Shown here piece by piece: positions 1 to 10,121 of a stretch of 10,414 bases of DNA. The notes under the pieces were generated by a model. That model was not told the origin of the DNA, did no database searches, and worked only from the letters and a program-made list of their open reading frames with translations. The DNA is taken from assembly GCA_002284615.2 (NCBI GenBank), contig MU070510.1:1-10414 (forward strand). Direction: 5' to 3'. Every line of letters starts with the position of its first letter. The stretch's first letter is position 1. This stretch comes from Dunaliella salina (Eukaryota > Chlorophyta > Chlorophyceae > Chlamydomonadales > Dunaliellaceae). The position numbers were made by a program, and so were the translations under genes.

Positions 1-205
1 TGGTTACTGCTCGGTGACTGAGCTGCTGGTGACTGCACGGTGCCTGGCCAGTTACTCAGCTAGTCATGCAAAGGAGTGTGACTGGTTGGTTACTGCTCGG
101 TGACTGAGCTGCTGGTGACTGCAAGGTGCCTGCCAAGTTACTCAGCCAGTCATGCACTGGAGTATTGCTGACTGGTTACTGTTCGGTGACTGAGCTGCCG
201 ATGAC
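1..205. repeat. 86-bp minisatellite, about 2.4 copies
   Basis: Two full 86-bp units (1-86 and 87-172) differ at only a few positions, and a third begins at 173 and decays after about 30 bases. The array probably extends left of the window. Inside each unit a shorter pattern of the form (T/C)GGT(T/G)ACTG recurs, for example at the unit start and around positions 12 and 29. This suggests the 86-mer itself grew from an older 10-13 bp repeat. No open frame is convincing here. Confidence 0.9.
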
Positions 206-416
206 AGCCTGATAACAATTCAATTACTTATTCAGTAATGCTCTAAAGTGTTGCTGGACGATTTCCAGGCAGTTACAAAATGAGAAATCGAGGCCGGTTA
301 CGATTTGGTTACTTGTTCAGAAACTGCTTTGTAACGGTCCAGTAATGAAATACAACATTCCGACGTGCTAAATATACAGACATTGGAAGAGGTATAAGGG
401 TTTGCATGGGGGTGGC
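206..416. other. Non-coding spacer
   Basis: AT-richer sequence between the minisatellite and the minus-strand LINE relic. Faint GGTTACTTG-like and GTAACGG-like words near 290-345 may be eroded minisatellite units. It would also hold the 3' untranslated region of the minus-strand element whose reading frame ends at 417. No other feature is seen. Confidence 0.5.
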
Positions 417-887: not shown

Positions 888-1480
888 CTATGCCTCAACT
901 CCCCTAAAAGTTCCTGCTTCGGAAGCTAAGTAGCACTCTGCATTTTCTGTTTTGAAATATCCTCAGAGCGCATGCCTCAAAAAGCTGCAAACACATGTGC
1001 AGACCAGCAGGTCTCACTGACTGAAGAGGTACAAACTGCCCATGGGCCAAAGTTTGGGCCTCCAGAAACGCTGTTTTGTAGCCTGCGTATCACCCTTACC
1101 CTGCTAGGGCCAAGCCACCCGTATCCATACCCGTAACCCCGCCTGAGACAATCTCATTAGCTAAACATTAACCAACGCCAACTTGAAGTGCACTCCATTG
1201 AAATTACGTATTGTGAAGGCACAAGGCCTGAATATCACTTGGCTGCAGCAAAGCAGCAGCATGCAGACCCTTGCAAACGCATCAGTGCTAAGAAGGAAAA
1301 GAAAAGAAAAGCCGCGTAGGCAGAGAAATTTCCCCTACGGAAAAGGGGATACCTAGGGCCGAGGCACGTGTATCTGCTTTACCTTCCTGGTAGCTCACAT
1401 GGGATGCCTCCTGCCTGAGATACAAGGTTACAGGGTTACAAGGGAAAAGAAGGCCTCCAGTGGAACTGACTGACTGCTAG
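888..1480. other. Gene-free stretch between two oppositely oriented LINE relics
   Basis: No frame of useful length and no recognised domain. Small features: an AAAAG-type run near 1292-1312, and a repeated GGTTACA word near 1426-1440. Parts may be undetected flanks of the minus-strand relic (its 5' side) or of the plus-strand reverse transcriptase that starts to be readable at 1481. Confidence 0.5.
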
Positions 1481-2210
1481 CCTACCTGTGGTGGAGCCTT
1501 TGCTGTTGACATTATCTGCCTTGTAAGCGCATTTCACAACCTTCAGCTTCAAGCCAAAAAGCTCACGCTACATGCAGACTGGGCACACCTTTTCATCTCT
1601 GGAAACAAAACCAAAGTCACTTGCATCCTGCACAGCAAAGAGACCTCACAGCTGCGGGGCAACACGAATGTATCAGACTTTGCCAACATTTTCTTACTGG
1701 AAGAATTCTTGTACAAGGCCAACCTGCTCAATTCATGCGCCAAGAGGAGCCTTTCCGCTACTTGGGTGTCCTAATAACCATGGATTTGAATTGGTCCCAC
1801 CAGAGTATGACCCAAAAACTTTCGGCTAGCCCCAAGCAAACATTAGATGTACTACGCAAAGATGCCATACCAAGCATAGCATATGCATTCCCTGTAACAC
1901 CTTGTTTGCCAGCTGACCTACACAAACGGGACACTAAGATACTGTTGACAATTAAATGACAACTCCAATAAGACGTAAGGGTGCCCTCGGCGAGCCATGC
2001 TGGACAACTACAGCTTAGCTACCAGAAAGAAGGAGTTTCAGAACAGTTTGCACAAGGCCCCCTCTGCCGTGGGCCTGGGTGGCCAAGTGTGAACTTTACC
2101 GGGAAACCTGCCAAACCTAGGGGCATGGTTCAGTTTGTGAAAATGACCTTTCATGCACCTTTCATGCACCTTTCAAAGGACGTGCGTGATCGGAACATTT
2201 TCTTACCGCG
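1481..2210 (+). pseudogene. LINE reverse transcriptase fragment (palm end and thumb), frameshifted
   Basis: This is the post-catalytic part of a non-LTR reverse transcriptase. The first open frame, 1481-1774, contains FAVDIICLV, which looks like an eroded F/Y-x-D-D catalytic box at about 1499-1525. It continues with LQAKKLTLHADWAHLFISG and NKTKVTCIL, the usual segment after that box in LINE enzymes. A frameshift near 1700-1720 moves the protein to the frame ending at 1959, which carries EPFRYLGVLITMDLNW, the classic [FY]-x-YLG motif of LINE reverse transcriptases. It is followed by the thumb-like SIAYAFPVTPC. After a stop the same frame resumes (1981-2210) with QLSYQKEGVSEQF, plausible as the connection region. 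Fingers, first catalytic aspartates and endonuclease are missing. An 11-bp tandem duplication sits inside (2148-2169). It belongs to a LINE, but the clade cannot be fixed. Confidence 0.85.
2148..2169. repeat. 11-bp direct tandem repeat
   Basis: CCTTTCATGCA occurs twice head to tail, and a third partial unit follows (CCTTTCAAAGG). It lies inside the reverse transcriptase relic, and 11 bp is not a multiple of three, so a recent duplication here would itself break the frame. Probably replication slippage. Confidence 0.85.
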
Positions 2211-2458
2211 TTGGACCCGTCGTCTTTCTTTCTGAAAAGAATAGGTCCCGTCTCTTGTTTCTGAAAAGAAAGGGATGGACATCCTGAGCAAAGTGGTCAT
2301 TTGCAATGTGCTCATTATTATTGCTGCAATCCGCCCCCGGCTCATGCGGGCTCATCTCAAACGTGTCAGTGGAGCGTCAGCAGAGCCCACGATGCGTGAG
2401 TGCAGCAATGAGGGGTGCATTTATGGATGGAGGTAGTACTGCAATGGTCAGATCATCA

Positions 2459-2459
<1 letters not shown>

Positions 2460-2533
<74 letters not shown>
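2460..2533. repeat. (CA)37 microsatellite
   Basis: Thirty-seven uninterrupted CA units. A perfect tract this long is typical of nuclear genomes of many eukaryotes and is highly mutable. The long Thr-His or Val-Cys repeats seen in translation are artefacts of this tract, not protein. Confidence 0.99.
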
Positions 2534-2534
<1 letters not shown>

Positions 2535-2724
2535 TTCTGGTACTCTGTGCAGATTTGCACCATTCGGCGCGCATGACAATTTGCGTAACAACCTCTCTTG
2601 AATAGACAACCCAGAGATCATTCAAGTGAGGGCAGCTTTAAACCTTCTTGCTGTGCAGTTGGACGCATGGACGTGACCTGCGCAGTTGGCATGCATATAC
2701 GTGTGTCTGGCCAAGGTGTGATAC

Positions 2725-2802
2725 TGTCTCATTCCTTTTCCATTCCTGTCTCATTCCCTTTCCATTCCTGTCTCATTCCCTTTCCATTCCTGTCTCATTC
2801 CC
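2725..2802. repeat. 22-bp pyrimidine-rich tandem repeat, 3.5 copies
   Basis: Units start at 2725, 2747, 2769 and 2791 (the last partial) and begin TGTCTCATTCC. Only one base differs between units 1 and 2. The array is almost purely pyrimidine on the plus strand and ends 18 bases before a CCACCAG. It could act as an expanded polypyrimidine tract of an intron that ends at 2821. Confidence 0.95.
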
Positions 2803-2821
2803 TACCACCTCCCCCCACCAG

Positions 2822-2902
2822 GTGGCGTCTGAATACCTGTCCAACGTGATTGCTGCTGCTGGAAACCCGGAGTACGTCCTGTATGTGCAGTGTCAATAGA
2901 GG
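2822..2902 (+). CDS. Possible internal exon, unrecognised protein
   Basis: An 81-bp segment lies between a polypyrimidine tract with CCACCAG (AG at 2820-2821) and GGGTGAGT (GT at 2903-2904), which are good 3' and 5' splice signals. The frame beginning at 2822 reads VASEYLSNVIAAAGNPEYV and continues to CQ. It then meets TAG at 2897-2899, two codons before the donor; the other two frames have early stops. So the exon is either broken or ends the protein. I do not recognise the peptide. It may form one gene or gene relic with the open segments at 3039-3741. Confidence 0.35.
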
Positions 2903-3038
2903 GTGAGTGCCAGTGTTTCCATGTGTGAGTTCAGATCAGGGCTACATACAAATAAATGCATAAGGCCTCATGTTAATGTTTCTAAGCTGTTTTGCTAGAG
3001 CTCACCATGTACCCTTTGCCGTGCTTGCATTTCTGCAG

Positions 3039-3741
3039 GCTGGCAATCGAGCTGCAGCAGCGTTGACCAGCATCCAGGTTGGGGCACCAAGAGCTGCTGT
3101 TGGGCGTCCCGGTAGCGATGTCCAATCTCGCTCACACAGGTGCACAACCGCTCTGTGACGCACTGCTCCAAGAACGCACCACCCTACAATCTTGGGGGTT
3201 GGATGTATATGCCCTGTGTGGAGAGCTGGAGAGCTGGCGCAGCGCCAGCTCTTGCCAGGAGGCCAAGGACCAAGCCATGCAGAGCTTAGTGATTTGCCTG
3301 CATGTCATCATGCTTAATCCCTTTTCCTCAGACATTTTTGAGCCAAAACAGAACCACAACCTGCCCCTCTTGTCACCTCTGAATACTTGGCTTGGTATGC
3401 AGGCCACCTGGGAGGCACTGAATCTGTGGCATCCAAGAAGGATGCGGGGCTCCACTCCTTCTTGGCCCCCAACACGAGCATGGCCAACCTCCCCACTGCC
3501 CAAGAGCAGCGCAATTTCCTTGCTGACGCTGGTGGACAAGGGGGTGAGGTGTAGGCTTTTTTATTTGTTAAACTGTTTTGTAGGGAGTTCCGCGAGCGAG
3601 ACTAGTTGTTTGTTTCAACGCCTTTGGCACCAACAGGGCATGCAAGTGATGAAACACTGTCTGGAAATTTTGATCCACATCGATAAGTTTTATTTCTCTG
3701 AACCTGCTTTGATTCAAAGGGATCCCCCCTGTAGGCTCTGA
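3039..3741 (+). CDS. Open reading region of unknown function, probably spliced
   Basis: A 3' splice signal (TTTCTGCAG, AG at 3037-3038) opens this region. The frame shared with ATG 3079 runs unbroken to the stop at 3739-3741, 220 codons. Upstream of the ATG the same frame contains TGA 3064-3066, in a CGT-TGA context that may be a decayed CGA codon. The first 70 residues look most protein-like: LCDALLQERTTLQSWGLDVY, then ELESWRSASSC, amphipathic and helical. From about 3290 the composition changes to a Trp/Pro-rich type, while another frame (3342-3551) looks better. A short intron ending at CCTCAG (AG 3330-3331) is therefore plausible. The family is not recognised. The 220-codon length could be chance plus an exon, so a host gene fragment and a decayed transposon gene both remain possible. 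Confidence 0.4.
3342..3551 (+). CDS. Possible exon in a second frame, unrecognised protein
   Basis: This 70-codon open frame follows AG 3330-3331 (CTTTTCCTCAG) and reads SEYLAWYAGHLGGTESVASK, then ANLPTAQEQRNFLADAGG. Its balanced composition is more protein-like than the overlapping Trp/Pro-rich frame. A donor-like GGGGTGAGG (GT 3544-3545) ends it, and an acceptor-like CCAACAG (AG 3635-3636) lies further on. It competes with the second half of the 3039-3741 frame, and both cannot be real. No family is recognised. Confidence 0.3.
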
Positions 3742-4520
3742 TTCAGCCACATAGGCGGTGCCTGATTTAGGCAAATAGCCAGACTCCCATTCAAATCCCT
3801 TTTTCTTTGATTCAGACCCCCTGATCCCTAGCCATCCCAGACTGCTTGATCACTGAATGTTTCTGATTCAGACCCAATTCAGGACCCCCCCTGTGCACGA
3901 AAGAGCGGTATAAGAATTGAACTGGGGATCACATGCTTTGCAGCGGGCCTCCAATGAGCCAAGGTCTCAGCGCCCATCCACGATCAATTCAAGTACATAT
4001 GTAATAATAATCCATTGCTTACCCTGTATACAATGAGCTCATCCGTAGGCTGTACATGCGCAGGAAAGCCTCACTATTGGTAATAGGCCTTGCAATATGT
4101 CTCCCCACCATCAACAGTGGCAGATGGAGAAATACACCACCTCTTGCATCATAGGCTTAGCACCCTCTGACTCAGAGCCACTTCGGAAGATAGTTCTGAA
4201 ACAGGTGGGTGTTCTTTATCAGAAATCTGCATGGGATTCTAGATGAATTGGCCTGATTATGAGAAAATTGGACTCTGCTTCGGAGGCAGTTCAGACATTG
4301 TGTAAATAGGCAGATGGGGCAAAGTTCGAATCAGACAAACATCAATCTGATTCAGAGTGCCTTCAGAGGGTCCATCACAAGGCAGATGGGAACTTAGATG
4401 AATTGGTCTGACTCTGAGAAGTTGAACACTGATTCAGAGGCGGTCCAGACATTGTGTGAATAGGCAGATGGGGTCCAGTTATGTTAGTCCAAATCACACC
4501 GGGTTTATTCTGATTCAGAA
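3690..4520. repeat. Ancient repeat field built on CTGATTCAG words
   Basis: The nonamer CTGATTCAG occurs exactly at 3738, 3863, 4347, 4429 and 4510, with close variants (TTGATTCAG at 3807, CTGACTCAG near 4168). It is palindromic apart from its central base. Many copies are followed by AGA or ACCC. This looks like an old repeat body that has diverged, perhaps the tail region of the SINE-like unit at 3903-3975. No coding frame is supported. Confidence 0.65.
3903..3975 (-). repeat. tRNA-derived SINE-like head (A box and B box), degenerate
   Basis: On the minus strand TGGCTCATTGGA (3962-3951) matches the RNA polymerase III A box, and AGTTCAATTCT (3924-3914) matches the B box (GTTCRANNC). They are 38 bases apart start to start, a little short for a tRNA. 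Between them, GCTGCAAAGC recalls the anticodon arm of a tRNA such as Ala-UGC. The T-stem and acceptor stem do not pair, so this is not a functional tRNA gene. It is better read as the head of an old SINE whose body would run towards lower coordinates into the CTGATTCAG field. A chance match is possible but the two boxes are in the right order. Confidence 0.45.
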
Positions 4521-4540
4521 CATCATCAGAGGCTCTTAAT
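4231..4540. repeat. Diverged tandem duplication, period about 155 bp
   Basis: The segment starting ATGGGATTCTAGATGAATTGG at 4231 is repeated from 4386. The best-conserved blocks are AGATGAATTGG, and CAGACATTGTGT(A/G)AATAGGCAGATGGGG, followed in each copy by a CTGATTCAGA block near the end. The copies differ at many positions, so the duplication is old. Confidence 0.8.
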
Positions 4541-4559
4541 GATGCTGCTCTGTTTCTGG

Positions 4560-5165
4560 CTCTCTCCTAGGCTAGCTATGTCATTTTGGCAATTCAATGC
4601 AGGCAGCCTGGTAGAAGAGGCAAGATCCTGAGGCCTTGAAGAAAAAAAAGAGAGGCTAAGCAGAGGTCAAGGGCAGCAGCAGCAGAAAAAGCAGCAGCAA
4701 AAGCAGTAGCGTCAGAGAGGAAGTCATGAACTGTAGGCAAATGTAGGCACCGGCTTTGCAAATCTTTAAATTTTGCTTGGAATTGTGCAGTTCTGAATTC
4801 TTGTATCCTCCTTTTTCTCTGTGACTACAGGCAAAGGGTCCATGGAATTTATGGACATGCAAACATCCTTTCATTGTTCAACATATTAGGAGCCCTCCAT
4901 GACCACATTCAGATCGCCACTGCCAGCTTCTACTCATCAAGCCTGAGGCATGACCTGTTCTAATAAATGTGCACAAATACACCTTCAGGAAATTGCAATG
5001 CACTGTGACCAGAAGGGTGTTTTCACCAACACAGAGGTGGCCATGAGATGCTCAAGTAAATGAGAGGGAGAGGGGGAGCAGGCGAGCAAGGTAGCAAATG
5101 CAGGAGACTACTCCCTACAAGGCCAAGCAAATTGTGAGCAGCAGGCAGCCTGGTAGAAGCAGCAG
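4560..5165. other. Gene-free purine-rich spacer with CAG clusters and a 19-bp dispersed repeat
   Basis: No convincing frame. Purine-rich and CAG-rich clusters lie at 4639-4710 and 5060-5170. The 19-mer GCAGGCAGCCTGGTAGAAG occurs exactly at 4599-4617 and 5141-5159, the second copy ending just before the large LINE becomes readable. Leu-rich translations of the minus strand near 4660-4710 are due only to the CAG runs. Confidence 0.6.
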
Positions 5166-5192
5166 CAACAGTGCTCATCTACAATTCATTGC

Positions 5193-5843
5193 CCAGGGCC
5201 ACCATGGCCCTGCCTGCCAAACACCTAAATGCTTGTATTAATTACTCAAGTACAACCTACGCCCTCAGCAATACATCAGCATTCATGCCAGTGGCCTGCA
5301 GCTGACCTTTCAAGGCCACTTGCCCTACGCGAAAACCTTCCATTCGATTGCAAACACCCTCTGGTCCCCAAAAGCACCTACGCTTCACTGGTTGCCTCTG
5401 TCATCCATCCCCTCATGGAAGCGGGAATTTCAAATTTCCATTCTATCCTTTCTGACAGGTGCACACACATCATGGATGTCAATGCTTTGTGCCACCACAC
5501 CACCTTAAAGAAGAAACAGACTATTGCCCTGAATAGGCTGGCTTCCCTTTTAAACTGTCACAATATAAGCCAAACAAACATTGAGCACATAAATGCAAAC
5601 ACTGATACCACACCAGACAAAGCTCCAGAACTCAGAAAAATGAATTACGCCACCTTAAACATGCTCACCCACTATACACCCCTAGGGTGGTCATGGCTCA
5701 TCCAGCGCACTCCATCAATTTCATACATAATAATAATCGTAGGAACAAGCGGTCCTCTGCCATCCAAACCCTCCCCCGCACGCAGCCTGCCCCAGAAACA
5801 CAAACCTCAAAGAAGCATACAAACAACTCCGCTACATTCTTAA
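5193..5843 (+). pseudogene. Reverse transcriptase thumb and connection segment
   Basis: The region starts in the frame of ATG 5193 (MALPAKHLNACINYSSTTYA), which resembles the thumb segment SIAYAFPVTPC of the other LINE copy at about 1880. A TGA at about 5302-5304 and a frameshift pass the reading to the frame of 5229-5843. That frame reads WPAADLSRPLALRENLPF, then HPLMEAGISNFHSILSD, HIMDVNAL and IALNRLASLLN. This pattern fits the helical connection region that follows the thumb in LINE proteins. The last 60 residues to the stop at 5843 are Pro/Ser/Lys-rich and look like a linker. The catalytic palm is not present. Assignment rests on order and on similarity between the two copies in the window. 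Confidence 0.6.
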
Positions 5844-6040
5844 CATTCCCACTGTAACCACGGAAACCAATGCACTGCCTGCAAACACAAACCCTCTTAC
5901 TGCATAACCCTTATAGGGCCATAGGAAATGGCATGCTGAGCAACAAGACTTCAATGCCATCCATACTGCTTTTTAGCACGACCTTCAATTCATGTTATCC
6001 TGGACTGGCAAATGCTGCGCAAAAAAAGCAAGGTTCTTAA
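5844..6040 (+). pseudogene. Low-information linker of the LINE polyprotein
   Basis: No frame is open through this 197-bp interval. Short pieces in different frames (for example GHRKWHAEQQDFNAIHTAF) suggest coding sequence that has taken several indels. It joins the reverse transcriptase end to the PHD-containing frame, which opens at 6041. No domain can be named. Confidence 0.4.
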
Positions 6041-6745
6041 CCTGCACACTCACAAGCACAACACAAGGTTGAATGGCAGCCACTGACACTTGAAAAATGG
6101 ACCCTGCCTATCCTACAAAAAGCAAAACTTGCGGCAGCCCGCATTGAGCCCTTTGCTAGGAGCCAAAACAAGGATGACGACTGCCAAATCTGCTGGACTC
6201 CGACCAGCCTGGAACATACTTTTGATGAAGACGATCATTATGACATGCTTCAATTGGACATGTGCTTACAAACACACCATTGGAAATGCCTGCTTCAACA
6301 CAACCTTCGCACACCATCACAGCGTATCCAGGCAGAACACAGTTCTACTTGGGTCTGTCCCTCATGTGCCAACCTTACAAATTCTCAAAAGACAGAGCAA
6401 AACACCTTTGCAGAAGAAGCTGAAATGGTTAATGTCACCTGGCACCCCACCTGGGAAGCAGCTGATTTGCTCTTTGCAAATCCGGACTTCAAAGCACTTG
6501 TGCAAAGTTTCGAACAATCCCACACGGAAAATACGTCGTTTCACCTGCACTCAACAGCTGCTGACAATGATGTGGACAATCTTGCCTGTCAAGGTTATGA
6601 GGGTTCCACAGACACTTCCAGAGATACTGGATCACCACCCAGGGCCACCCCATGCGCAACAAGGCATACTTTGACCCAGAACCTACCAACCCTCGAGCAG
6701 ATATCATATCCACAAAGAAATGTGTATTCTGGTTGCAAAAAATAG
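6041..6745 (+). pseudogene. LINE polyprotein segment with PHD finger and chromo-like patch
   Basis: The longest well-kept frame of the element, 234 codons open from 6041 to the stop at 6743-6745. It begins with EWQPLTLEKW and a helical stretch. A PHD finger follows at 6182-6367: CQIC, then LDMC, then H-x2-C (HWKC) with exactly four residues between the cysteine and histidine, then WVCPSC. PHD fingers bind two zinc ions with Cys4-His-Cys3 and often read histone H3 tails. Here the third cysteine is replaced by leucine (TTG 6254-6256), so zinc site two is damaged. At 6422-6520 EMVNVTWHPTWEAADLL and FKALVQSFEQ resemble the last strands and C-terminal helix of a chromodomain (W...TWE...L...F); its first part is missing or unrecognisable. 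Known precedent: PHD fingers occur in ORF1 of some CR1-like LINEs. A role in chromatin-targeted insertion is inference. Confidence 0.7.
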
Positions 6746-7093
6746 ATATTGTGGCACCAGGATCCAACAGGAATTGGTGGACTGTCAAACCCCCCCTCTT
6801 GCAGTGATACCACTCACGCAGCATGCATCTACGGTACCAGAGGAAAATGTGCATGCATACTCACCCCCTACAGACTACAAATCCTGCTTCAAGCATGCGA
6901 TGCAGCCAGACAAGCTGGCCTCCACACCTCCATACAGCCCCCCGTCCAAGATGAAGCAACAGAAATTATGACCTCTTACACAGGCACACATCCCACCTCA
7001 GAAAAGGCAATCAGAAACTGAAAGAGTCAAACTCTCTGCGCACACCGGAGCATATCCTTACAGCCCTAACATGCTATGCCCTGAACGCAATAA
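6640..7093 (+). pseudogene. LINE polyprotein linker, two frames
   Basis: The protein path leaves the PHD frame and continues in the next frame as NKAYFDPEPTNPRADI and, after a lysine-rich piece, KIDIVAPGSNRNWWTVKPP. It shifts again near 6805 to GTRGKCACILTPYRLQILLQ and QDEATEIMTSY, ending at the stop 7019-7021. A short piece in yet another frame (LRTPEHILTALTCYALNAI, about 7035-7093) leads into the methyltransferase-like segment. The peptides are well-formed but match no domain I can name. The WW and the basic Cys-containing stretch could belong to a small DNA-binding module. Confidence 0.45.
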
Positions 7094-7447
7094 AAACTTG
7101 CAAGCCCCCTTGACTATGACACACATTTCAAAGCATACTGGAGTCCTTACGCTCGAGACAGGGTATTTGGGGCCAACATTGACATGTTTGCAACTAAACT
7201 TACAGTTTTCTCCTCTTGCCATCCTGCCCATGATGACGCAATTATATACCGTCTCATCCTTCATGCCCTGACCTCGTCGGAGCCACAGATATTATCCCGA
7301 CTGTGGCTTTCATGCCTCTCACCAGGCAGATGAGATGGAACAAGAAAGGCTACATGCGCTGGATGTCAAGCCATCCTGCCCATGCCACATTCCTTGCAAA
7401 ATTTCTCTCAGGGAGTCACTCCCTAGGGAGTCACTCCCTGGGGTGAG
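7094..7447 (+). pseudogene. Methyltransferase-like (Dam-type) segment of the LINE polyprotein
   Basis: Two frames combine. 7094-7331 reads LDYDTHFKAYWSPYARD, VFGANIDMFATK, then SSCHPAHDDAIIYRLILHAL. After a shift near 7265, 7276-7447 reads IIPTVAFMPLT and NKKGYMRWMSSHPAHATFLA. Phage-type Dam N6-adenine methyltransferases have the same sequence of elements: an aromatic-Ser/Thr-Pro entry motif, a glycine plus D-x-x-A strand, a catalytic D/N-P-P-Y followed by a helix, then a hydrophobic strand ending in Leu-Pro and an aromatic patch. Here the catalytic position reads CHPAH, so activity is very unlikely in this copy. DIRS-type elements are known to carry Dam-like domains; I know of no firm case in LINEs. 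The fold assignment is tentative, and a different conserved domain is possible. Confidence 0.4.
7410..7439. repeat. Tandem pair of a perfect 15-nt palindrome
   Basis: AGGGAGTCACTCCCT (palindromic around its central C) occurs twice without a gap. The 30 bases also read as one large inverted repeat. The duplication is 15 nt long, so it keeps the frame of the methyltransferase-like segment and adds a second SHSLG pentapeptide. A related GGGGTGAGACGGTCTCACCTT follows at 7440-7460 and holds a further small inverted repeat (GTGAGACGGTCTCAC). Confidence 0.95.
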
Positions 7448-7841
7448 ACGGTCTCACCTTCCAATCACCTCAAATCTATCTTCCTCTAGTTTTATCAGAA
7501 AAAAAATACTAGACACATGTAACCAACAAAACAATCCAAGCTGGCTTGAGTGCTTACAAAATGAAATCCCTCAAGGAATATGCTGCCAAAGAAGCAACCG
7601 CCAGCTTGCACATAGAGGCAACACATCCCTCTCCTTAAAAGCACCTTGCAGGTGGAGGAAGATATTGGCACTCCTACATCAAGACACATACAATAACTTT
7701 TAAGCTTCTGTCCAACAAAAAAATATTACACCTAATATACACCTGTACACAGAACCCCTGCAACCCAAAATCCCAGACTGGCGATACCTGACATACACAG
7801 ATGGCAGTGTCGTCACCTTTGCAGATGGAGAGAATCAATAA
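7448..7841 (+). pseudogene. Linker and start of RNase H domain
   Basis: One frame is open apart from TAA 7701-7703, from the palindromic repeat to TAA 7839-7841. The first 85 codons are helical, polar linker with no named domain. After the internal stop the frame reads IHLYTEPLQPKIPDWRYLTY and then TDGS (YTDGS at 7794-7808). This is the first strand of type I RNase H with its first catalytic aspartate (codon 7800-7802). The protein then shifts to the next frame near 7842-7890. Confidence 0.7.
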
Positions 7842-8382
7842 ACAAGTGCATCTTTCTTCGTCAACAAAAGCATCAACTGCGCTCAACTCACACCATCAAG
7901 GCAGAGCAGAGCTTGCTACGATTTTGGTTGCCCTTCAGCAAGGGCACACTTCCATCGCAACTGATAGCTCCTCAGCAATTAACCAAACCAGAAAGCAGAT
8001 CCTTGAGCCCATGAGCATGTCCACACACCTACATGCACAAATCCTCCTCGACATAATGCATCATATTAATCGTCAGAAACTCCTGTACACTTTTACAAAG
8101 TCAAATCACACTCTGGCATCCTTGGCAATGGAGCTGGTGCTGACCGCACATGCTTTTCAAGCAGCAATGTCACCTTACCAAGCTGACACCTCACTCAACC
8201 AAGCAGACAATCCTTTCTACCATCTGTACTTGCTTGCTACACCTGTTGGAAAACCTGAATCTCACACAGAACTTTGGACCCTTCCAAACCCACAAGATAA
8301 ATTAAAACAAATTATGCATGACAAGCACAAATTGGGGGTAGCAAACATCAACACACAAATTGGCAAAACTTGCAGCGATTGA
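7842..8382 (+). pseudogene. RNase H domain and following segment of the LINE polyprotein
   Basis: RNase H removes the RNA strand of RNA/DNA hybrids. Continuing from YTDGS, this frame supplies GRAELATILVALQQG (catalytic Glu, codon 7909-7911) and SIATDSSSAI (catalytic Asp, codon 7963-7965), in the usual order and spacing. Near 8097-8160 TKSNHTLASLAMELVLTAHA corresponds to the final S-H-x-G...N-E-x-A-D-x-x-A block, but the fourth acidic residue is lost. The frame then reads NPFYHLYLLATPVG, ELWTLPNPQDKLKQIMHDKH and KLGVANINT, a well-preserved module I cannot name, and stops at 8382. Three of four catalytic acids survive. Confidence 0.75.
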
Positions 8383-8803
8383 CCAATCACCAACCCACTG
8401 TTAATTATAAGATTAGCAATGCATTCTGGCAAATGAAAACCGTCACTCTTAAAGAGCAGACAAATATAATGCGACATCGAACGGACACTGTGGCACACTC
8501 TACAACAGCAAGCATGCCGCACGATTCAATAACCACCCCGGGCTTGCTCTTTGTCCTCTTTGTGGTGCTCCTGATAACATCTCCCATAGTCTACTTAGAT
8601 GCACCCACCCAACAATCAATAGAATGAACATAAATCGTCATCATCAAGCTCTCAGCATCTGTGGTGAAGCACTCAGCAACGGAAACTTTGGACCCCTTCA
8701 TTGTTTCAATGGATGCATGCAACACAGACAGACACAGCTCCCTAGGCATGGAAATTCCGGAAAATGCCCAGAGAAACATTCCACATTTGATTTTCCCATC
8801 TAG
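8370..8803 (+). pseudogene. C-x2-C-x7-H-x4-C zinc finger segment of the LINE polyprotein
   Basis: Reading starts in one frame as KISNAFWQMKTVTLKEQTNI plus MRHRTDT. Near 8490 it shifts to the frame open to TAG 8801-8803, which reads LYNSKHAARFNNHPGLALCP, then LCGAPDNISHSLLRC. The finger CPLC-x7-H-SLLR-C lies at 8552-8602. This spacing is the known finger between reverse transcriptase and endonuclease in R2-like LINEs, where it helps bind the target DNA. After it comes THPTINRMNINRHHQAL, with the Arg-His pair that follows the finger in such proteins. Note the different spacing and residues from the minus-strand finger at 594-641. Confidence 0.75.
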
Positions 8804-9227
8804 AGAACCACCACATATACACCTCAGTTGCCCTGATGGCATTATTGTATTACCCCTGGAAAAAAAAGTAGAGACTCTACCCGCCATCCGAAGGACATGA
8901 ACCCTAGAAACAGAGACATTGCTGCCTCATTGAGATTCTGCTTAGACACCATTCCTGAACAAACACCCCTGACTGCACAAAATCAACATAAAGACGCTAT
9001 TGAGAACTTACGCACAAAACACTTTGAGGTCCGCACCGCAATAACAGAGTCACTTTACACACTATCCTTATTGGACTTGCCAGACTATTTACAACCCCTA
9101 AGCTATTGATCCCCTCTGTGACTAAGGCTTAACCAAAGAAAGAGCCCAAAAGACTGCAACCAAGCTACACCTTCATACTGTTAAGACCTTAGCAGAAACT
9201 GAAAACACCAAACATGCCATACATTAA
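8661..9227 (+). pseudogene. Restriction-like (PD-D/E-x-K) endonuclease, C-terminus of the LINE polyprotein
   Basis: This type of enzyme nicks target DNA so the 3' end can prime reverse transcription. The first frame (to 8900) reads MEIPENAQRNIPHLIFPSR and CPDGIIVLPLEKKVETLPAI, with PD at 8832-8837. The next acidic element appears in another frame as CLIEI (8923-8937; Glu codon 8932-8934), and a third frame resumes with CLDTIPEQ (from 8939) and QNQHKDAIENL. The few bases expected to encode Lys after IEI seem to be deleted at the shift, so the PD...E-x-K site is broken. Near 9049 the frame VTLHTILIGLA takes over. From about 9126 GLTKERAQKTATKLHLHTVK and TLAETENTKHAIH end at TAA 9225-9227, taken as the original stop. 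That Lys is lost is inferred from the family pattern. Confidence 0.6.
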
Positions 9228-10121
9228 TGTATGAAATATTTCAGCAATTCAAAAAACACAGAACCGGGTTTGGCGGCTAGTGAACGTGCAGGTTACAGAA
9301 GGGTGAGGCGCACGCCTAGACGGAGGCTCATGGTCAGGGACAGCGCAGACTGTTGGGTCTTTTCTTAATCCACGCTGGATCTTATCCAGCATAGACTTTT
9401 ACTTCTCCTTTTACTGCTAGCCTGTTCAGAAAAAGAGAATGAGTCCACAAAGGAAGGAATACAGTTTCTTGTTGTTTTGATTAAGGAAACGAGACGCATC
9501 GTGTGACTGGACATGGTGAGAAGCAGGCAAGTAAGGAACCATCTGAGGAATTGGAGGAGGAAGAAACAAGAGAGCATCAGCGCTATAAACGTAACTATTC
9601 AGCTAAATAAATTATCCAGCACATAGTCAAGTGTGTTAAATCGAGCACATCCTTAGAAGTTAACACAGTTCTAGTAGATCTGGACCACAAACTTGTCATT
9701 ACACTTTCTCAAATACCCATGCCCATTCAGTTCAGTGACGTAGGGGACTCAAGGCTTTCCTGTGCCATGTGTGTCTCTTTTTCCTTGGTTGGCGTAGGGA
9801 GAGTTTTCCTACCAGTGTAGAGCCAGTAGTCCTTCTTTTCTTTCTTACCCTAGAGCTTGCGATGCAAGTTGCAAACCCTCTGGAGCATTTTGTTTCGGAA
9901 TTCAAGCATCTCAAAAAGGGAAAGGAAGATGACAAGTGACAACCGAATTAAATTTGACAGCACACACTTTCACGTGCTTTGTTTTTGCAATTCATGCTTC
10001 CTTCGACAGGAAGGTTGCACGTCTTAACTTCGGCTTTTGTGCACAAAATTGCTTTGGGTGATTCAGGCGTTTTCCAACTACTCTGAAGCAGCTAAATTCT
10101 AAGGATTACTATGGTCCTTTC
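9228..10121. other. Gene-free stretch after the LINE
   Basis: The first part is probably the 3' untranslated region of the element. An AATAAA lies near 9604-9609, but neither a poly(A) tail nor a target duplication is clear. Short open frames on both strands are not protein-like. A small hairpin is described separately. From about 9700 the sequence is T-rich and could be an intron leading to the acceptor at 10123-10124. Confidence 0.5.
9374..9390. repeat. Small inverted repeat (7-bp stem, 3-nt loop)
   Basis: GCTGGAT, CTT, ATCCAGC forms a perfect hairpin about 150 bp after the end of the LINE reading frame. It could be part of the 3' untranslated structure recognised by the element's own reverse transcriptase. 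At this length it could also be chance. Confidence 0.5.

What the first reader, a model, noticed from the sequence alone, without database searches (positions are those of the whole stretch)
5166..9227. LINE with an unusual domain chain: RT, PHD, chromo-like, methyltransferase-like, RNase H, CCHC finger, restriction-like endonuclease
The segments lie in one orientation, in consistent order and without host sequence between them, so they look like one ancestral polyprotein. RNase H together with a C-terminal restriction-like endonuclease is itself uncommon, since R2-like LINEs normally lack RNase H. The added PHD, chromo-like and Dam-like modules would make a LINE carrying both chromatin-reading and DNA-modifying domains. 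Such an element could choose its targets by histone mark.
Basis: partly seen in the sequence, partly recalled or inferred. Interest (0 to 1): 0.8.

Follow-up and report, generated by a model that had tools for sequence, protein, structure and literature searches.

The report
LINE carrying chromatin-reader and methyltransferase-like domains
This is a dead copy of a green-algal jumping gene, probably of a known but obscure group (Dualen/RandI), whose long protein also carries a histone-reader finger, a chromodomain-like piece and a relative of an mRNA cap methylase, which makes chromatin-guided insertion a testable idea.

Summary
The domain chain is real; the interpretation needs correcting. The window copy is a broken, nested LINE in an unnamed 285-Mb genome whose nearest named relatives are Dunaliella salina. 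Its RT fragment lies at 1484-1956; a ~3.2-kb insertion (1957-~5165) splits it; it resumes at ~5170 and ends near 9412. APE sequence lies upstream in other copies. Another copy in this genome (L045) has RT, PHD, chromo-like, methyltransferase-like, RNase H, zinc-finger and RLE parts in one 2430-aa frame; 67 of 120 listed database relatives have RT, methyltransferase-like, RNase H, zinc finger and RLE, in that order in all 67. The PHD finger is genuine. The chromo-like piece resembles only the C-terminal part of a chromodomain (weak support). The 'Dam-like' part belongs to the PCIF1 family (RNA cap m6Am methylase); its catalytic motif is lost in this lineage, so DNA modification is not supported, though 18 of 61 relatives keep an NPEY-type motif. 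APE plus RLE plus RNase H fits Dualen/RandI, so RNase H with RLE is not itself new. The PHD/chromo-like/PCIF1-like block did not turn up in the open literature I could search. Histone-guided targeting is plausible and untested.

The parts
1140..1291 (+). RLE fragment of a different, related LINE family; neighbour, not part of this element
   Evidence: tblastn of P0001, P0003, P0005, P0006, P0008 and L045
1484..1956 (+). Reverse transcriptase fragment (includes the RYLGV motif), frames 2 and 1
   Evidence: tblastn of natural RT frames L028, L015, L045; blastn adjacency to ~5170 in copies; below Pfam detection in the window itself
1957..5165 (.). Insertion that splits the element; 2600-5160 matches another interspersed repeat (C316, 86% over most of the match)
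5170..5843 (+). Post-RT connecting region of the polyprotein (three frames)
6059..6100 (+). Pre-PHD W-x-P motif (QYLVxWxPT in relatives); chromo-like by eye only, no profile support
6182..6367 (+). PHD finger (C4HC3), 7 of 8 zinc ligands left in this copy (the third Cys is Leu)
6422..6520 (+). Chromo-like segment (EMVNVTWHPTWEAADLL...)
6809..7811 (+). PCIF1-like methyltransferase domain, broken by frameshifts; recognised through relatives, not in the window alone
7220..7231 (+). Position of the PCIF1 NPPF motif; reads H-P-A-H here
7758..8370 (+). RNase H domain, two frames
8489..8692 (+). CCHC zinc finger, homologous to the zinc-knuckle region of R2
8790..9221 (+). Restriction-like endonuclease region; second motif reads ASLR here, while L010, L011 and L017 have E-L-K
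9224..9412 (+). C-terminal remnant, 3' UTR with GCTGGAT/ATCCAGC hairpin (9374-9390) and degenerate (CTTTTA)n tail

Best explanation
A dead, nested copy of a Dualen/RandI-type non-LTR retrotransposon of a green alga near Dunaliella. Complete relatives encode one very long protein: AP endonuclease, reverse transcriptase, PHD finger, chromo-like segment, PCIF1-like methyltransferase fold, RNase H, CCHC finger and restriction-like endonuclease; several also carry a Josephin, Ulp1 or OTU-type protease domain. Likely working: the protein binds its own RNA, is held to nucleosomes by the PHD/chromo-like module, nicks DNA with an endonuclease, copies RNA by target-primed reverse transcription and removes RNA with RNase H. 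The PCIF1-like domain was probably an adenosine methyltransferase acting on the element's own RNA (cap or near it) and has become non-catalytic, perhaps RNA-binding, in the lineage of this copy. Shown: architecture, order, frame, motif state. Inferred: all activities, the nucleosome tether, the substrate.
For: Copy L045 with a single 2430-aa frame holding RT-PHD-chromo-like-MTase-like-RNase H-ZF-RLE. Order kept in 67 of 67 complete relatives, of 120 listed. P0090 (2863 aa) passes Pfam cut-offs for APE, RT, PHD, PCIF1_WW and RNase H in one protein. 22 members scanned at E<=0.01: RVT_1 20, RNase_H 20, PCIF1_WW 17, PHD 9, Exo_endo_phos 4. The profile of alignment A3 matches in the PDB R2 RT (3e-52), MLL3 and DPF PHDs (best 1.9e-9), PCIF1 (4.6e-7), RNase H1 (8.9e-10) and the R2 zinc knuckle (4e-5 to 2e-4 as a stretch). 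An APE profile finds L028 (9e-24) and L015 (1e-16), 2 of 21 sequences scanned. PHD ligands nearly invariant. Third-codon-position excess 2.0-2.8 in RT, PHD, chromo-like, MTase-core, RNase H and ZF segments among older subfamilies.
Against: No Dualen reference sequence was available, so group membership rests on anatomy. The RLE rests on its RPD...ExKYC motif and place: the R2 RLE stretch aligns in line but is not significant on its own (9.6 and worse) and PDDEXK_9 in P0090 is below cut-off. The chromo-like segment has no Pfam match and its best named PDB chromodomain match is 0.012 with a pattern-chosen profile and 0.041 with a pattern-free one. PCIF1_WW is below its cut-off in P0001, P0004, P0005, P0011 and P0018, absent in P0113 and listed for no Haematococcus row. 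Flanks of the MTase part show little codon bias (1.3-1.4). The structure model was poor (pLDDT 42.8). No activity or histone binding was tested. I read no copy of this genome with APE and the rest in one frame.
Confidence: 0.8

Rival explanations
1. The segments come from several elements stacked by nesting, and the chain is an accident of this locus.
For: The window is nested: another family's RLE piece at 1140-1291 and a repeat at 1957-~5165. Among the 20 copies first fetched none holds the chain in one frame; the longest listed frame without long N runs is 525 aa.
Against: The order is kept in one open frame in L045 and in 67 of 67 complete relatives among 120 listed, from Haematococcus and many metagenome contigs; blastn runs through the chain in several copies.
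Confidence: 0.02
2. PHD, chromo-like and PCIF1-like parts are used for RNA or DNA binding or for folding, with no role in choosing targets.
For: NPPF is found in 0 of 61 rows and NPxY or NAEY in 18 of 61. The chromo-like segment lacks an identifiable first strand, and the pre-PHD motif found no PDB match. PHD-like fingers can bind non-histone ligands (recalled).
Against: PHD zinc ligands nearly invariant; the finger's best PDB matches are histone-reading PHDs (their reading function is recalled). Codon-position bias over PHD and chromo-like segments.
Confidence: 0.4
3. An R2-like RLE element that gained RNase H and host domains, rather than a Dualen/RandI member.
For: The RT is closer to R2 than to L1 among solved structures (3e-52 against 6e-29 by profile; 4e-18 against 0.01 by single sequence), and the zinc knuckle aligns with R2.
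Against: APE upstream of RT in the family and in many relatives and RNase H in the relatives; R2 has neither (recalled). The two named hosts, Haematococcus and Dunaliella, are green algae.
Confidence: 0.09
4. The methyltransferase-like part is an active DNA adenine methyltransferase.
For: PCIF1 belongs to the N6-adenine methyltransferase fold (recalled), and NPEY-type motifs in 18 of 61 rows keep Asn and the aromatic residue.
Against: Matches are to PCIF1 (RNA cap), not to Dam families. In the 21-row RT clade holding L045 no row has N-P-x-[YF], and this copy reads HPAH.
Confidence: 0.05

Closest known systems
Dualen/RandI non-LTR retrotransposons (Chlamydomonas and other green algae)
   Same: APE plus RLE plus RNase H around an RT; green algae; 3' tail of short tandem repeats
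   Different: A PHD finger, chromo-like segment and PCIF1-like domain between RT and RNase H; I saw this described for Dualen/RandI in none of the passages read or listings seen (the founding paper was not held)
R2 elements
   Same: RT and zinc knuckle homologous by profile; the RLE stretch follows in line but is not significant on its own
   Different: R2 lacks APE, RNase H, PHD and PCIF1-like domains (recalled)
CR1-group LINEs with a PHD in ORF1 (recalled; phrase matches in papers listed)
   Same: A LINE with a PHD finger
   Different: There the PHD is in ORF1, not inside the RT polyprotein (recalled)
Chromoviruses (Ty3/gypsy elements with an integrase chromodomain; recalled)
   Same: A chromatin-reader piece in a retroelement polyprotein
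   Different: LTR elements with integrase and a full chromodomain
PCIF1/CAPAM cap adenosine N6-methyltransferase
   Same: FASPLN and NPPF regions align (5.9e-6)
   Different: NPEY-type motif in some relatives, HP-x-Y or other in this lineage; embedded in a LINE protein
DIRS elements with a Dam-like methyltransferase (recalled)
   Same: A retroelement with a methyltransferase fold
   Different: Tyrosine-recombinase element and a different methyltransferase family

Membership tests
Dualen/RandI | APE endonuclease N-terminal to RT | tested here: met
   APE profile (18 non-redundant relatives chosen by a motif pattern) hits L028 (9e-24) and L015 (1e-16), copies of the window family, 2 of 21 sequences scanned; Pfam Exo_endo_phos above cut-off in P0090 and P0113. 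Missing from the truncated window copy; none seen by eye in the 3 kb upstream of L045; Pfam and PDB alone missed it in L028
Dualen/RandI | C-terminal restriction-like endonuclease | tested here: met
   Met by motif: RPD...ExKYC.DT conserved at the C-terminus. Profile support is weak: R2 RLE stretch not significant alone, PDDEXK_9 at 0.07 in P0090
Dualen/RandI | RNase H domain | tested here: met
   PF00075 above cut-off in 9 of 9 relatives and in L022
Dualen/RandI | RT placed between the RLE-only and APE-only groups | tested here: inconclusive
   Closer to R2 than to L1; no Dualen reference sequence was available for a tree
Dualen/RandI | 3' tail of short tandem repeats | tested here: met
   (CTTTTA)n-type tails in the window, L009, L017, L018 and L019 of the copies printed; RandI families of green algae listed with (ATT)n and (CTATTT)n (PMC3747384 table passage)
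R2 | Single endonuclease (RLE) and no RNase H (recalled) | tested here: not met
   APE and RNase H present
PHD finger | C4HC3 zinc-ligand pattern and profile match | tested here: met
   Ligand columns 37/39, 47/47, 48/48, 48/48, 48/48, 47/48, 48/49, 49/50; PF00628 8.3e-8, above cut-off, in P0090. Below cut-off in the window, L028 and P0018
Chromodomain | Three-strand fold with aromatic cage and C-terminal helix | tested here: inconclusive
   No Pfam chromodomain match in 8 segments at E<=10. Pattern-free profile: 11 of 14 PDB matches up to E 10 are named chromodomain proteins, best of these 0.041; the top match is a ribosomal protein. Only the region of the WEP motif and helix aligns
PCIF1 methyltransferase family | Profile match | tested here: met
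   PF12237 above cut-off in P0003, P0006, P0008, L009 and P0090, below it in P0001, P0004, P0005, P0011 and P0018; precomputed for 29 of 120 listed proteins; PDB PCIF1 at 5.9e-6
PCIF1 methyltransferase family | Catalytic NPPF motif (role recalled) | tested here: not met
   NPPF in 0 of 61 rows; NPxY or NAEY in 18 of 61; HPAH in the window copy
Dam DNA adenine methyltransferases | Profile match to a Dam family | tested here: not met
   No Dam family among the matches reported for the relatives scanned

The most novel reading that the evidence does not exclude
A widespread clade of algal LINEs carries a complete chromatin-and-RNA toolkit in one protein: a PHD/chromo-like reader that steers insertion to chosen chromatin (for example centromeric or silent chromatin; Dualen elements are reported at Chlamydomonas centromeres) and, in the lineages with NPEY, a PCIF1-type adenosine methyltransferase that marks the element's own capped RNA, repeatedly lost in others including this one.
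Probability: 0.25. Interest if true: 0.85.

Novelty: new variant of a known kind. Interest (0 to 1): 0.62.

Why it matters
If the reader module works, these are LINEs with a built-in histone reader, giving a direct way to test chromatin-guided target choice in LINEs. The PCIF1-like domain suggests that a LINE took up an RNA cap-methylase fold; this genome holds at least 150 places over the PCIF1_WW cut-off. The mix of NPEY-type and decayed motifs on one RT tree makes loss of catalysis testable.

Tried and rejected
Dam-like assignment: replaced by PCIF1. Accident of nesting: rejected by single-frame relatives. The pre-PHD QYLVxWxPT motif as first half of a chromodomain: the profile (15 of 27 non-redundant segments) found no PDB match at E<=10. 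The first chromo-like profile (15 of the 16 segments) was chosen by a W-x-P-x-WEP pattern and so is biased (20 of its 23 matches are named chromodomain proteins); the pattern-free A8 was made as a check and gave the same answer more weakly (11 of 14, with a ribosomal protein on top). AlphaFold of P0018 with 9 sequences: low confidence, no conclusion drawn. A deeper second model and a fold search could not be run. One scan of viral contigs with six peptide patterns of P0005 found no relative. Pfam on the L028 ORF missed the APE and PDB found nothing; a profile from relatives found it, while BLASTP to P0090 was weak (0.016). The 3' end folded as RNA was no more stable than shuffles (z -0.78, 42 of 200 at least as good). 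Whether the genome is Dunaliella salina was not settled: one search hit only the LINE part of P0010 at 79-89% among 41 scored candidates, and the host-gene query did not complete.

Literature: full-text searches (open-licence PMC only); listings were cut to 20 of 91, 20 of 25, 40 of 95 and 12 of 408, and I saw titles and starts of abstracts. PMC4640811, PMC3747384, PMC3636483 and PMC8226300 were seen as passages. The founding Dualen paper (Kojima and Fujiwara 2005) is not held and was not read.
Full report
Source and extent. The window is contig C1053:1-10414 of an unnamed 284.9-Mb assembly in 1403 contigs. The nearest named proteins carrying pieces of such elements are from Dunaliella salina (P0009, P0010, P0012-P0017; 76-87% identity over the matched part). 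I could not show that the genome is that species: the query with P0010 matched only its LINE part at 79-89% among 41 scored candidates, and the host-gene query did not complete. Segment 6041-6745 gave 45 matches with 40 of 414 candidates scored, a lower bound. Twenty copies were read at length. None holds the chain in one frame; the longest listed frame without long N runs is 525 aa.

The element is longer than reported and is nested. Eleven of the 20 copies match both window 1488-1956 and the stretch after ~5170. In seven of them (L011, L018, L019, L023, L024, L026, L027) the two matches are 170-191 bases apart; L015, L021, L025 and L028 differ. Natural RT frames from L028, L015 and L045 match window 1484-1956 in frames 2 and 1. 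So the RT of this copy is upstream, and 1957-~5165 is an insertion. Window 2600-5160 itself matches an interspersed repeat (C316, 86% over 1232 of its bases). The 3' end is near 9412: several copies share a hairpin GCTGGAT/ATCCAGC and a CTTTTA-repeat tail, although the RNA fold there is no more stable than shuffles. The copy is dead: its matches to L045 change frame several times and cross 8 stop codons (5, 1 and 2 in three pieces).

One frame. L045 (C812) has a natural uninterrupted frame of 2430 residues (five X from N bases) with RT 170-589, PHD 1342-1416, chromo-like 1418-1465, methyltransferase-like 1650-1805, RNase H 1880-2039, zinc finger 2125-2232 and RLE 2223-2429. No APE was seen by eye in the next 3 kb upstream, and its RLE second motif departs from the norm, so it is no proof of a working copy. 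A database search with its RT part gave 216 proteins, of which 120 are listed, 1387-4249 residues long; many are Haematococcus lacustris proteins, most others metagenome frames without a name. With profiles built here, 67 of the 120 have RT, MTase-like, RNase H, ZF and RLE at E below 0.01, and 67 of 67 are in that order. These profiles rest on few seeds: MTase-like on P0011 alone, RT on L045 alone, PHD on two sequences. The PHD pattern was found in 81 of 124 rows (the 120 plus L045, P0005, P0008 and P0018). By precomputed Pfam, 29 of the 120 carry PF12237, no Haematococcus row among them, and three (P0090, P0103, P0119) carry APE, RT, PHD, PCIF1 and RNase H together. P0090 (2863 aa) was rescanned and passes the cut-offs for these five; P0113 shows APE, RT and RNase H above cut-off, a PHD below it and no PCIF1.

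PHD. In the window the finger is below the Pfam cut-off (PHD_4 0.0082, PHD 0.1) and has lost one of eight ligands. In 62 aligned rows the ligand columns hold the expected residue in 37/39, 47/47, 48/48, 48/48, 48/48, 47/48, 48/49 and 49/50 rows with a letter there. The family profile matches MLL3, DPF2, DPF3, KMT2D and KAT6A PHD chains in the PDB (best 1.9e-9; 60 of 269 matches shown). Which histone state it would read cannot be told from sequence.

Chromo-like segment. The 75 residues after the finger were taken from 81 rows without any pattern filter and reduced to 36. Their consensus is LxxVxWxPxWEP, with the Glu invariant and the first Trp in at least 90%. The profile finds 14 PDB sequences up to E 10: 11 are named HP1, CBX, Clr4 or CHD1 chromodomain proteins (best 0.041), one is unnamed (2m2l), one is a phosphodiesterase, and the top hit is a ribosomal protein (0.017). 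An earlier profile chosen by pattern gave 23 matches, 20 of them named chromodomain proteins counting cpSRP43 and MPP8 (best named 0.012); it is biased by selection. Pfam finds no chromodomain in eight segments at E up to 10. I call it chromo-like and leave the fold open. A second W-x-P motif before the finger has no support.

Methyltransferase-like domain. Relatives match PCIF1_WW up to 1.9e-16; 17 of 22 members match at 0.01. It is above the cut-off in P0003, P0006, P0008, L009 and P0090 and below it in P0001, P0004, P0005, P0011 and P0018. In the PDB the P0090 domain aligns with PCIF1 at 5.9e-6, ERFASPLN over ECFASPLN and EANPEY over EANPPF. The genome has at least 150 places over the PF12237 cut-off and the 14 control genomes none (scoring stopped at 150 of 881 candidates, and I did not check that each lies in a LINE). 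At the NPPF position 0 of 61 rows have NPPF and 18 of 61 have NPxY or NAEY. On an RT tree of 54 rows (nine of the 62 rows had no RT and were dropped, L045 was added) all 18 lie among the 33 rows outside the 21-row clade that holds L045 (clade support 92/86). NPEY-type rows stand on both sides of the midpoint root, so repeated loss from an NPEY-like ancestor is the simpler reading, but that root is for drawing only. The Dunaliella-type families read CHP-x-Y and the window CHPAH. That NPPF is the catalytic motif of PCIF1 is recalled.

RNase H, zinc finger, RLE, APE. RNase H passes its cut-off in 9 of 9 relatives. The zinc finger aligns with the R2 zinc knuckle (4e-5 to 2e-4 as a stretch); the R2 RLE stretch follows in line but is not significant alone (9.6 and worse), so the RLE rests on its motif, its place and its conservation. 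L010, L011 and L017 keep E-L-K at the second motif where the window has ASLR. An APE profile from 18 non-redundant relatives, picked by a motif pattern, hits L028 and L015 out of 21 sequences.

Selection. Between the window and older subfamilies (75-81% identical; 6-11 copies a segment) differences at third codon positions exceed the mean of the first two 2.0-2.8 fold in the RT, PHD, chromo-like, MTase-core, RNase H and ZF segments, and 1.2-1.6 fold in the linkers and in the two flanks of the MTase part. Against near copies (87-92%; 2-9 copies) the ratio is 0.4-1.5, with ZF at 1.98, as for dead copies. No significance test was made.

What it is. APE plus RLE around one RT is given for Dualen/RandI (PMC3636483 passage), RNase H is reported for the group (PMC4640811 passage), and the tail type fits RandI (PMC3747384 table passage). 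RT is closer to R2 than to L1 among solved structures, which fits a deep-branching RT but does not prove the group. Dualen elements are reported as contributors at Chlamydomonas centromeres (PMC8226300 passage), which fits chromatin-guided insertion without proving it. In the listings of my ten literature searches (several cut short) no title or abstract start describes a PHD or PCIF1 domain inside these elements. The founding Dualen paper and most subscription journals were not available, so this is not proof of absence.

Verdict. Observation partly confirmed (chain right, coordinates and two labels corrected); interpretation partly supported. A new variant of a known kind: Dualen/RandI-type LINEs with a PHD, chromo-like and PCIF1-like block.

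Noticed in passing
window 1140-1291: Fragment of the restriction-like endonuclease of a different, related LINE family on the same strand just upstream of this element.
   Followed up: partly
window 1957-5165: The insertion carries an interspersed repeat (2600-5160) with two ~155-base units near 4231-4480 and many partial copies in the genome.
   Followed up: partly
window 1-258 and 2459-2533: An 86-base minisatellite of three units, and a long CA repeat.
   Followed up: no
relatives P0019-P0138: Many relatives carry a Josephin (PF02099) domain, P0109 and P0121 an Ulp1 (PF02902) and P0127 an OTU (PF02338) domain: three protease types in one element group.
   Followed up: no
P0009, P0010, P0012-P0017: Annotated Dunaliella salina proteins contain RLE or zinc-finger pieces of these LINEs, probably gene-prediction fusions.
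   Followed up: no
P0011: A 763-aa relative is filed under a Deltaproteobacteria metagenome bin, probably eukaryotic contamination.
   Followed up: no
P0001-P0008, C-terminus: Seven of these eight relatives end in PPDPH and P0008 in PRDPH.
   Followed up: no
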